64,000 nucleotides of DNA from Gammaproteobacteria bacterium (GTDB lineage: Bacteria > Pseudomonadota > Gammaproteobacteria > Competibacterales > Competibacteraceae), in NCBI GenBank assembly GCA_020846135.1, contig JADLEK010000053.1, forward strand, positions 124,001-188,000, in the 5' to 3' direction. Made by a program: the position numbers and the translations under genes. The notes below the pieces were generated by a model, which was not told the DNA's origin, searched no databases, and worked only from the letters and a program-made list of their open reading frames with translations. This document shows positions 59,858-62,813 of the stretch, piece after piece (the first letter of the stretch is position 1; each line of letters opens with the position of its first letter).

Positions 59858-61471
59858 ATGACTGACCAAACCTCCCAAACCCAACGTCGCAAACCCGCCC
59901 GCCTTGGCCCACGCAAGCGTCTGTTCCGTGACCTGTTGCTGCTCTTGTTCCTGACCATCGGCAGCTTGCTGGCGGCGGTATTTATCGCCGGCGAGACTCT
60001 GCGCGACCGGTTGGCCCAGGAACAATTGCAAAGCCTAGCCCAGCAAACCAGCAAAAATCTGAGCGGATTCCTGCAACTCCCGGAGAACAGCCTGCGCATG
60101 GCCCAAGGCTGGGGCAAAGCCGGCGATCTGGATTTGGCCGATACCTCTGCTTTGGTCAGCCGCTTTATTCCCGTCCTGGAGAATCTCGCCAAGGTCTCTT
60201 CGCTGGCGCTGGCGGATTCCGATGGGCGATCCTTCTACCTCGCCCGCGAATCGCTGGGCTGGCTTTCCCGCCGGCTCGACCCCTTGGGCCATGCGGTCTG
60301 GCAACGCTGGAGCGGCCCGGGTGCGCCACTGGAGGAACGCCAAGGACGGGAAGATGACGATCCCCGCACCCGTTCCTGGTTCAAGGGCGCACTGGCGATG
60401 GCTGATCCCAGCCAGGTGTTCTGGACTCATCCCTACCTGCTATTTACCGAACACACCCCCGGCATCACCGGCGCCCTGCGCTTTCAACGTCAGGGCGAAC
60501 CTGGCCGTGATTATGTCCTTCGCCTCGATCTGCCCTTAAAAGACCTCCTGCAAGCGCTGGCCCAGTTAGAAATCGGCGAGCGCGGCGCGGCCTTCATGAC
60601 CGAGGCGAACGGGGCGGTGCTGCTGCCGCCAATCATGACGGAAGGAGGCGAGTCCACGGTCCCGGCCAGCCTGTCGCCCGAGCAACTCGACGCTGGGCCG
60701 GTGTTCGACGCCATCAAGGCGTGGTTGGCGTCTGGACGACCGGCGCGCCAACCCGTGACCTTGCGCGAGGGAACCTGGTGGGCCTGGCTGCAACCGTTGA
60801 ACAATCCGGAAAAAGGACTCTGGCTGGGCATCGTGATCCCGGAATGGGACTTTATCGGCGCTTTGCAAAGCGGGTGGATACTGGTGATCACGGTCGGCAT
60901 TCTGGCGCTGGCCGGCGGGCTGATCGCGACCCTGCTGCTCACCCGCCATTACGGCCGCCACTTCAAGGCGCTGCCTTCACTGACCGATCATCCGGCTGAA
61001 TTTGAGGAGAAAGTGCTGGCCCTGGTGCGCTATGGCGAGAGTCCCAATCTGGAGTTCAAATCGACCTTGCGCACCAACCTCAAAACCGGCAAGCCTGGCA
61101 AGGAAATCGAGCTGGCCTGGCTCAAAAGCGTGGTGGGCTTCATGAACACCGACGGCGGCATTCTGCTGATCGGGGTCAACGATGCGGGCGAAGTGATCGG
61201 CATTGCCGCAGATGAGTTTGAAAACGACGACAAGTGCCTGCTGCATTTCAAGAATCTGATTAACCAGCACATCGGCGCGGAGTTCAGCAAATACCTCCAC
61301 GCCGAAATTCGTCCGGTGACCGGTAAAACCCTGATTGCGGTGGTCTGCGCAAAGGCCCGAGAGCCGGTGTTTTTACTGACGGGCGGCAACGAGGAATTTT
61401 ATATTCGCAGCGGCCCCTCCAGCATCAAGCTGACGCCGCGCCAGATGTTGCAGTATCTCAGCGCGCATTGA
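59858..61471 (+). CDS. Membrane sensor protein with C-terminal AlbA/Schlafen-type domain
   Basis: A 537-residue protein with an unusual layout. A first transmembrane helix (23-45) leads into a periplasmic dCache-like sensor region of about 290 residues (for example VSSLALADSDGRSFYLARES and GLWLGIVIPEWDF). A second transmembrane helix follows (338-362). The cytoplasmic domain of the AlbA_2/Schlafen type (about 394-510) has ESPNLEFKSTL, VVGFMNTDGGILLIGVND and the closing EEFYIRSGPSSIKL. AlbA_2 domains bind nucleic acid or nucleotides and are common in regulators and defence proteins. Signal transduction from an outside ligand to a nucleic-acid-binding domain is inferred. The ATG at 59858 gives the full first helix. 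Confidence 0.75.
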   Translation: MTDQTSQTQRRKPARLGPRKRLFRDLLLLLFLTIGSLLAAVFIAGETLRDRLAQEQLQSLAQQTSKNLSGFLQLPENSLRMAQGWGKAGDLDLADTSALVSRFIPVLENLAKVSSLALADSDGRSFYLARESLGWLSRRLDPLGHAVWQRWSGPGAPLEERQGREDDDPRTRSWFKGALAMADPSQVFWTHPYLLFTEHTPGITGALRFQRQGEPGRDYVLRLDLPLKDLLQALAQLEIGERGAAFMTEANGAVLLPPIMTEGGESTVPASLSPEQLDAGPVFDAIKAWLASGRPARQPVTLREGTWWAWLQPLNNPEKGLWLGIVIPEWDFIGALQSGWILVITVGILALAGGLIATLLLTRHYGRHFKALPSLTDHPAEFEEKVLALVRYGESPNLEFKSTLRTNLKTGKPGKEIELAWLKSVVGFMNTDGGILLIGVNDAGEVIGIAADEFENDDKCLLHFKNLINQHIGAEFSKYLHAEIRPVTGKTLIAVVCAKAREPVFLLTGGNEEFYIRSGPSSIKLTPRQMLQYLSAH

Positions 61472-61547: not shown

Positions 61548-62813
61548 TTAATGCCCCTCGGCACCCGTTGCCGCCCGCAGATTCCGCCCGCTTTCCGAAT
61601 ACAGCAGCCGGCCCGGATGCAACACTTGCCGCTCAGTTCCCTGTTCAGCGCAGCGCTGCACCAACCGGTCAATAATCACCTTCAAGCCTTCTGCTTGCAG
61701 CGGGTAGTGATGCTCCAGCCGCAACAGCTCGCCGGCGGCGTCCTGTGTCATCACCGTATAGGCCAGCGTCCCCAATTCCGGGTCGGCATGGCAGGTCACC
61801 ATCATCTGATGCTCCGGGGCCTCGCGGTCATTCTGGAACATGGCTTCAATCAGATAATCCCCGGACAGGCAGGGAATCTCGCGCATCGCCGCTTTGGCGG
61901 TTTCGCCATCGGCGGTCGCTAGAATTTCCTCCAGTTGTGGATTCGCCAGCACCCAACGGACTTCCAACCCATAGGCGGCCAACGCTGATGTGTATTGTCG
62001 TTGTTGCCATACCCAGCGTTGATAACCCACGCCCAGTTCCGCCGCCGGCAACGCCCGGCCCGGCCCGAACTGCGCCCAGTCGTCGAAGGTGTAAAACAGG
62101 GTATGCGCATGATCGCCGGTCACCAGCAAGCGGTTGCCGCTCTCCAGTGTGACGGGCCGGACGCCGGGCCGTTCAAACCAGGCGTGTTCGAGCAAATCCC
62201 ATAATGGCAATAAGCCATTGCCTTCCAGTTGCACCCGCAGCAAGGCGCACAAATCGCCCAGGGTAGCGAACGACAGGTTCAGCGCACTCAGCCCAAACGC
62301 CTGTTGCACCGCCTCGCGGGTAGCGGGCGAAACTTCGCCGTTTTGCAACAAATCATCCTCCATACGCCGCGCCAGCCGACTGATGTCATCCGGCGTTCCG
62401 ACGAAGCAGAACGGCAACAGCAGCAAAGGACCCGAACCGGGCCGGCGCTGCGGGTTAATCTCGGCCATCGGCAATAACCCGCGATCCGCACCCAAGGCGA
62501 TCAACTGCGGGACAAAGCCGCCTTGCAAACTGCCGGCATAGACATCAGCCAGCGCGATGGGCAAAGGCAGGCCCGGCTGCAAAATTTCGGTCTGATCGTA
62601 GAGCGCGCCAGGCAGAATCAGCCCCAGATGGTCGATGCCGCCGAGAATGTGATCTAGGTCTTTGGCTAGGTGACCGGCCAGCGCCGAGGCAGCGCCGACG
62701 CTCAGCGGTGCGGGCGGGACACCGGTCGGATCGGCGTGGTGCGGATCGAGTTCGATCACCAGCAGCCCGGGGTAATGGCGGAGTTCGTTCGACAGGAGAG
62801 AGGTCTTGGCCAC
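61548..62813 (-). CDS. Conserved-looking hypothetical protein
   Basis: A 421-residue protein that I do not recognise. It is soluble, acidic and leucine-rich, starts with GTG at 62813, and shows strong third-position GC bias, so it is a real gene. Recognisable parts are an N-terminal GLLVIELDPHHADP, a central LLLLPFCFVGTPDDISRLARRMED and a late CLSGDYLIEAMFQND. No signal peptide, membrane helix, Walker or metal motif is seen. Its 3' end faces the sensor/AlbA gene; its 5' end is divergent from the acyl-CoA dehydrogenase gene. Confidence 0.7.
   Translation of the reverse strand: MAKTSLLSNELRHYPGLLVIELDPHHADPTGVPPAPLSVGAASALAGHLAKDLDHILGGIDHLGLILPGALYDQTEILQPGLPLPIALADVYAGSLQGGFVPQLIALGADRGLLPMAEINPQRRPGSGPLLLLPFCFVGTPDDISRLARRMEDDLLQNGEVSPATREAVQQAFGLSALNLSFATLGDLCALLRVQLEGNGLLPLWDLLEHAWFERPGVRPVTLESGNRLLVTGDHAHTLFYTFDDWAQFGPGRALPAAELGVGYQRWVWQQRQYTSALAAYGLEVRWVLANPQLEEILATADGETAKAAMREIPCLSGDYLIEAMFQNDREAPEHQMMVTCHADPELGTLAYTVMTQDAAGELLRLEHHYPLQAEGLKVIIDRLVQRCAEQGTERQVLHPGRLLYSESGRNLRAATGAEGH

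What the first reader, a model, noticed from the sequence alone, without database searches (positions are those of the whole stretch)
59858..61471. Two-helix membrane sensor fused to an AlbA/Schlafen-type domain
dCache-like sensors normally end in kinase, cyclase or chemotaxis domains. Here the cytoplasmic output is an AlbA_2-type domain, which suggests direct coupling of an external signal to a nucleic-acid- or nucleotide-binding activity. The neighbouring 421-residue gene is unknown and mobile-element debris lies just upstream, a typical setting for accessory or defence genes.
Basis: partly seen in the sequence, partly recalled or inferred. Interest (0 to 1): 0.6.

Follow-up and report, generated by a model that had tools for sequence, protein, structure and literature searches.

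The report
Membrane receptor ending in Schlafen-type nuclease
This bacterial gene encodes a membrane receptor whose outside part resembles amino-acid sensors and whose inside part is related to the tRNA-cutting Schlafen enzymes, so an outside chemical may switch on RNA cutting inside the cell; the domain order is conserved in dozens of genomes, but neither binding nor cutting has been tested.

Summary
ORF 59858-61471 (+), 537 aa, is TM1 - periplasmic dCache - TM2 - SLFN_AlbA_2. It is a conserved family, not a chance fusion: at least 33 full-length copies were seen, in Competibacteraceae (the host; 8 copies), Chromatiales, another gammaproteobacterial family (16 of 24 genomes) and three further phyla. 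dN/dS is about 0.04 over the cytoplasmic domain.

The cytoplasmic domain is better described than 'nucleic-acid or nucleotide binding'. Its model matches the catalytic lobe of vertebrate Schlafens and the SAMD9 tRNase domain, and it keeps their catalytic E-EhK motif (E394, E399, F400, K401) plus D442, invariant in every aligned member. The sensor keeps PctA-type pocket residues R172, W174, Y193 and D224, invariant in the 18 aligned members; the pocket's D146 is missing.

Best model: a one-protein receptor in which an external amino-acid-like ligand rearranges the receptor dimer and so gates a metal-dependent RNase acting on tRNA or rRNA. Ligand, substrate and direction of control are inferred.

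The defence setting is not supported: neighbours are mostly housekeeping genes and none recurs across lineages. I found no published dCache-Schlafen receptor, but the key bacterial Schlafen preprint could not be read.

The parts
59858..61471 (+). dCache-TM-SLFN_AlbA_2 receptor gene, 537 aa
   Evidence: at least 33 full-length homologues with the same architecture
59927..59995 (+). TM helix 1 (about residues 24-46), continuing into the long first helix of the dCache domain
   Evidence: hydropathy; model helix 18-87
59996..60868 (+). periplasmic dCache sensor domain (residues 47-337)
   Evidence: Pfam, PDB profile match, model Z about 17 to dCache structures
60371..60529 (+). ligand-pocket signature R172, W174, Y193, D224 (PctA R126, W128, Y144, D173)
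   Evidence: alignment; invariant in 18 sequences; PctA residues from PMC7584622 and PMC10104139
60869..60943 (+). TM helix 2 (about residues 338-362)
   Evidence: hydropathy; model helix 330-366
60995..61468 (+). cytoplasmic SLFN_AlbA_2 domain (residues 380-537), predicted endoribonuclease
   Evidence: Pfam E 1.4e-17; fold match to SLFN C-lobe and SAMD9 tRNase domain
61037..61060 (+). E-EhK catalytic motif E394-S-P-N-L-E399-F400-K401
   Evidence: invariant in 18 fusions and in other AlbA_2 modules; essential in SLFN13 and SLFN14 (PMC5862951, PMC12215978)
61181..61183 (+). D442, counterpart of SLFN13 D248
   Evidence: profile alignment to 5yd0; invariant
61406..61408 (+). R517, candidate counterpart of SLFN13 R134 / SLFN14 R133
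   Evidence: weak in-register alignment; invariant in all 19 AlbA_2 modules aligned

Best explanation
A single-protein transmembrane receptor. Outside the inner membrane a dCache domain of the PctA type binds a small ligand, most likely an amino acid or a similar molecule. Ligand binding changes the geometry of a receptor dimer, passed through TM2 to two cytoplasmic SLFN_AlbA_2 domains. These form a metal-dependent endoribonuclease of the Schlafen/SAMD9 kind, using E394, E399 and K401 with D442 nearby, that cuts tRNA or rRNA and so tunes translation. An arginine (R517), whose counterpart in vertebrate Schlafens comes from the other half of a fused pseudo-dimer, would here come from the partner protomer, so the enzyme would be complete only in the right dimer. 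Shown by computation: architecture, topology, both folds, conserved catalytic and pocket residues, wide conservation. Inferred: RNase activity, RNA substrate, ligand class, dimer, and whether the ligand turns it on or off.
For: Architecture and two TMs. dCache fold, Z about 17. Counterparts of PctA R126, W128, Y144 and D173 invariant in 18 fusions; a Y-x-P-x-x-R-P-W form of the signature was also found in 7 of 12 copies of another family by pattern search. AlbA_2 fold matches 3lmm, the SAMD9 tRNase domain and SLFN catalytic lobes (residues about 192-351 of SLFN14) at Z about 9-13. E-EhK and D442 invariant; E205/E210 mutants of SLFN13 and E206/E211/K213 mutants of SLFN14 are inactive. AlbA_2 dN/dS 0.03-0.07. 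In the AlbA_2 tree the dCache fusions need only 1-2 label changes. Related AlbA_2 modules cap GmrSD-like and HsdS-like proteins, consistent with a portable effector.
Against: No activity, ligand or dimer was tested. The E-EhK motif was also present in the other AlbA_2 modules examined, so its presence does not single this protein out. The domain is one lobe, whereas vertebrate SLFNs use two plus a zinc finger that is absent here. PctA D146 is replaced by L or F, and Y121 by D in this copy, so an amino-acid ligand is not assured. The R517-R134 correspondence rests on a -1.5 bit alignment. The arrangement of the domains relative to each other is poorly determined (pTM 0.51).
Confidence: 0.57

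Rival explanations
1. The AlbA_2 domain only binds nucleic acid. The protein is a membrane-tethered regulator that holds or releases RNA or DNA in response to the ligand, without cutting.
For: AlbA_2 is treated as a DNA-binding domain in older annotation (PMC6299218); the SAMD9 AlbA_2 domain was solved with DNA (7ksp). Membrane-bound one-component regulators are known in general (own knowledge).
Against: The catalytic glutamates and lysine are invariant across four phyla and the domain evolves at dN/dS about 0.04; no HTH was found.
Confidence: 0.22
2. A defence device: envelope damage or a phage-associated signal activates a suicidal tRNase (abortive infection).
For: Schlafen RNases occur in BREX-linked loci and are reported in anti-phage defence (PMC12839542 and the preprint it cites). 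Related AlbA_2 modules sit on GmrSD-like and HsdS-like proteins. A cas3-like gene lies near the Marichromatium copy.
Against: No defence-gene neighbourhood in most loci; fixed synteny among housekeeping genes in 8 genomes; slow, apparently mainly vertical evolution in Competibacteraceae (78-86% against 83-91% for purB); no viral-contig relative and no plasmid or phage carrying the fusion; only a marginal PADLOC match.
Confidence: 0.12
3. The domain acts on another nucleic acid or nucleotide, for example as a DNase or an enzyme of a nucleotide signal.
For: SLFN active sites resemble restriction nuclease sites (PMC12215978); several vertebrate relatives also bind DNA.
Against: The closest characterised relatives by fold (SLFN catalytic lobes, SAMD9) act on tRNA or rRNA.
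Confidence: 0.09

Closest known systems
Vertebrate Schlafen RNases (SLFN11/12/13/14), catalytic C-lobe
   Same: AlbA_2 fold (Z about 9-10), E-EhK motif, Asp at the D248 position
   Different: one lobe not two, no CCCH zinc finger, no C-terminal helicase-like part, membrane-anchored under a sensor
SAMD9/SAMD9L tRNase (AlbA_2) domain
   Same: fold (Z 12.4-12.7); single AlbA_2 domain with an E/E/D triad that depletes tRNA-Phe (PMC12331169, PMC11221667)
   Different: SAMD9 is a cytoplasmic multidomain protein; its glutamates are spaced E184...E196, not E-x4-E
dCache_1 receptors of the PctA type (chemoreceptors, kinases, cyclases, RsbU-like phosphatases)
   Same: TM-dCache-TM layout, PctA pocket residues R126, W128, Y144 and D173
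   Different: usual outputs are MCP, kinase, GGDEF/EAL, cyclase, phosphatase or HTH (PMC4822843), not a Schlafen-type nuclease
GmrSD-like (DUF262) proteins with C-terminal AlbA_2
   Same: related AlbA_2 module at the C-terminus (32-44% identical)
   Different: fused to a GmrSD_N-like domain instead of a membrane sensor; one matches the candidate defence family HEC-05
Short two-TM AlbA_2 proteins (L023, L024, L025, L067)
   Same: membrane-tethered AlbA_2 with the same motif
   Different: no periplasmic sensor domain, about 260-300 aa, separate clade

Membership tests
dCache_1 sensor receptors | double Cache fold between two TM helices with a long N-terminal helix | tested here: met
   (Z about 17); Pfam score 36.6 is below the curated cut-off of 45
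dCache_1AA amino-acid sensors | pocket residues PctA Y121, R126, W128, Y129, Y144, D173 | tested here: inconclusive
   R126, W128, Y144 and D173 invariant; Y129 is F/Y/H; Y121 is Y in most but D in this copy; the additional pocket residue D146 is replaced by L/F
dCache_1AA amino-acid sensors | binds L-amino acids | not testable with these tools
   needs calorimetry or thermal shift
SLFN_AlbA_2 domain family | Pfam PF04326 above its cut-off and AlbA_2 fold | tested here: met
   64.8 bits against 25.3; Z 12.8 to 3lmm
Schlafen-type endoribonuclease | ExxxxExK (E-EhK) motif | tested here: met
   E394, E399, F400, K401 invariant
Schlafen-type endoribonuclease | Asp at the SLFN13 D248 position | tested here: met
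   D442 by profile alignment, invariant
Schlafen-type endoribonuclease | Arg of the partner half (SLFN13 R134, SLFN14 R133) | tested here: inconclusive
   R517 invariant, aligned in register but at -1.5 bits
Schlafen-type endoribonuclease | metal-dependent RNA cleavage | not testable with these tools
   no assay available
Vertebrate Schlafen proteins proper | two-lobed N-domain with CCCH zinc finger | tested here: not met
   one AlbA_2 domain; only two cysteines (C460, C497) in residues 381-537 and no H-x-C...CC pattern (zinc ligands in PMC12215978)
Anti-phage Schlafen defence systems | defence-island location or linkage to defence genes | tested here: not met
   mostly housekeeping neighbours, no recurrent partner across lineages
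Anti-phage Schlafen defence systems | protects against phage | not testable with these tools
   needs phage plating on an expression strain
Membrane-bound one-component transcription regulators | cytoplasmic HTH DNA-binding domain | tested here: not met
   no HTH match in the protein

The most novel reading that the evidence does not exclude
A new class of bacterial receptor: an external amino-acid-type ligand directly gates a membrane-anchored Schlafen-type tRNase through receptor dimer geometry, with R517 completing the active site in trans, linking nutrient sensing to translation in one polypeptide without phosphorelay or second messenger.
Probability: 0.27. Interest if true: 0.82.

Novelty: new variant of a known kind. 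Interest (0 to 1): 0.57.

Why it matters
If right, dCache receptors have an output class not listed in the surveys I read (PMC4822843, PMC7584622): direct RNA cleavage. It would show how a single-lobe Schlafen-type domain can be regulated, and offer a compact system for testing whether Schlafen activity depends on dimer geometry. The reading is directly testable with point mutants and a soluble sensor domain, and at least one strain-collection carrier exists (Marichromatium gracile DSM 203).

Tried and rejected
Chance fusion or frameshift artefact: rejected by orthologues and dN/dS. Operon with the 421-aa gene or the transposase: rejected (convergent gene, genus-only; no IS630 match near the other copies). 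Fixed partner gene across lineages: none found; only within one family is there synteny, with hpnC and hpnD, and in the Competibacteraceae genomes where hpnD was found, and in G379, it lies elsewhere. Phage, plasmid or viral origin: no fusion in phages, plasmids or IMG/VR (the viral scan was pattern-limited). Defence annotation: PADLOC gives only a marginal pAgo-profile match from the AlbA_2 part (E 0.002). Centring genome searches on locus ids failed. [quoted passage not shown] 'CbCash' (PDB 9ylu), a weak AlbA_2 relative, could not be traced to a paper. Foldseek against viral models gave no match with convincing similarity over the whole architecture.

Full report
WHAT IS THERE. The ORF at 59858-61471 (+) encodes 537 aa. 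The window lies in a Competibacteraceae genome (G000:C53), judged from its named orthologues. Pfam gives SLFN_AlbA_2 at residues 394-525 (E 1.4e-17) and a sub-threshold dCache_1 at 52-258 (E 4.7e-9). A profile of eight orthologues matches chemoreceptor dCache structures (6mni, PctA 5ltx; E down to 2.3e-7) and Schlafens in the C-terminal part. Hydropathy gives two TM segments, 21-48 and 331-364, and a +7 N-terminus.

STRUCTURE. The full-length AlphaFold model (18-row alignment A3, pLDDT 80.8, pTM 0.51) has the long first helix, dCache strands and TM2 helix expected of a dCache receptor. Residues 41-338 align with dCache structures at Z about 17, rmsd 3.5-4 A. The cytoplasmic domain folded alone (pLDDT 84.3, pTM 0.81) aligns with the bacterial AlbA_2 protein 3lmm (Z 12.8), SAMD9 tRNase structures 7ksp and 9o0d (Z 12.7 and 12.4) and the catalytic lobes of SLFN5/11/12/13/14 (Z about 9-10); unrelated rows are at 5.4 or below.

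CONSERVATION. In the family, 7 orthologues at 78-86% are full length, while purB of the same genomes is 83-91% identical, so inheritance looks mainly vertical, with absence from some relatives. A scan of 84,980 species genomes with two peptide patterns gave 17 loci: seven are the Competibacteraceae orthologues, and ten more distant full-length fusions (33-41%) come from Chromatiales and other Gammaproteobacteria (Marichromatium gracile DSM 203, Thiocapsa, Thiosymbion), Desulfobacterales, a record titled Deltaproteobacteria (Myxococcota in the tree label) and Kiritimatiellota (Pontiellaceae). In another gammaproteobacterial family 16 of 24 genomes carry the AlbA_2 part, one as a contig-edge fragment; 12 were checked for two TMs and the motif and two more for length and motif. 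L062 adds one more. dN/dS against the window copy is 0.09-0.16 overall and 0.03-0.07 for AlbA_2.

CATALYTIC SITE. SLFN13 needs E205 and E210, with D248 contributing (PMC5862951). SLFN14 needs the ExxxxExK (E-EhK) motif E206, E211, K213, and also R133 (PMC12215978). The profile alignment to SLFN13 (5yd0, E 2.6e-9) places E394, E399 and K401 on E205, E210 and K212, and D442 on D248. All are invariant in the 18 fusions and in the 19-member set that includes other AlbA_2 modules. In SLFN13, E210 bonds R134 of the bridging domain. The same profile aligns R517 with R134 in register but at -1.5 bits; R517 is invariant. Because a single lobe lacks the second half, this suggests a homodimer with the arginine supplied in trans. 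That step is inference. The vertebrate CCCH zinc finger is absent.

SENSOR POCKET. PctA pocket residues R126, W128, Y144 and D173 (PMC7584622 and PMC10104139) correspond to R172, W174, Y193 and D224, invariant in 18 fusions. D146 is L or F, Y129 is F/Y/H, and Y121 is Y in most but D in this copy. An amino acid or a related ligand is therefore likely but not certain.

RELATED MODULES. The same AlbA_2 subfamily caps GmrSD-like proteins (L063, L064, L068, and by sequence likeness L073, L076), HsdS-like proteins (L065, L066) and short two-TM proteins (L023-L025, L067). In a tree of AlbA_2 domains the dCache fusions need only one or two changes of label, consistent with a single fusion followed by descent and spread (one origin is not proven).

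CONTEXT. The 421-aa neighbour is convergent and shared only with the same genus. No IS630 transposase match was found near the other copies. Across the other loci no neighbour recurs between lineages, and neighbours with Pfam matches are mostly housekeeping genes. In the family with 16 of 24 carriers, eight genomes examined keep the same genes on both sides; in the one annotated, the gene lies between hpnC and hpnD, followed by hpnE, with ubiG and a phosphoglycolate-phosphatase-like gene upstream. In the Competibacteraceae genomes where hpnD was found it lies on another contig, so the hopanoid link is not general. No viral, plasmid or phage copy of the fusion was found.

MECHANISM. Shown by computation: receptor topology, both folds, conserved catalytic and pocket residues, wide conservation. 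Inferred from the named families: metal-dependent cleavage of tRNA or rRNA, dimer-based gating, amino-acid-like ligand. Unknown: direction of control and physiological trigger.

NOVELTY. dCache output surveys list MCPs, kinases, GGDEF/EAL/HD, phosphatases, cyclases, transcription factors and ion channels (PMC4822843; PMC7584622). Paper searches found no dCache-Schlafen receptor. The cited bacterial Schlafen preprint was not available, so priority is uncertain. I file it as a new variant: a known sensor module on a known nuclease module, in a combination I could not find described.

Noticed in passing
L048:3636, L049:1921, L051:5968, L052:4429, L056:5959, L057:5959, L061:346: TATAAT or TATACT ends 6-8 nt before the receptor's ATG in 7 of 8 loci tested; among 2132 ATGs in those loci these 7 were the only such cases. 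This suggests leaderless mRNA in those copies; the window copy and most copies of the other family do not show it.
   Followed up: partly
L092:7237-12677 and the same place in L093-L099: The receptor gene sits between hpnC and hpnD (squalene/hopanoid genes, named in L092) with the same flanking genes in eight genomes of one gammaproteobacterial family, perhaps co-expressed; unexplained.
   Followed up: partly
window 61548-62813 (-): 421-aa ORF without Pfam, NCBIfam or PADLOC match; an 88% identical copy next to the receptor only in the same genus.
   Followed up: partly
L065:253-1968, L066:1495-3300 (-): Proteins with a type I specificity-like (HsdS) domain fused to a C-terminal AlbA_2 module with the same catalytic motif.
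   Followed up: no
L023, L024, L025, L067: Short two-TM proteins with a cytoplasmic AlbA_2 module and no sensor domain form their own clade.
   Followed up: partly
window 61235-61348 (residues C460, H463, H471, C497): Two Cys and two His are invariant in the 18 dCache fusions, but position 460 is not Cys in the other AlbA_2 modules aligned; a metal site distinct from the Schlafen zinc finger is possible.
   Followed up: no
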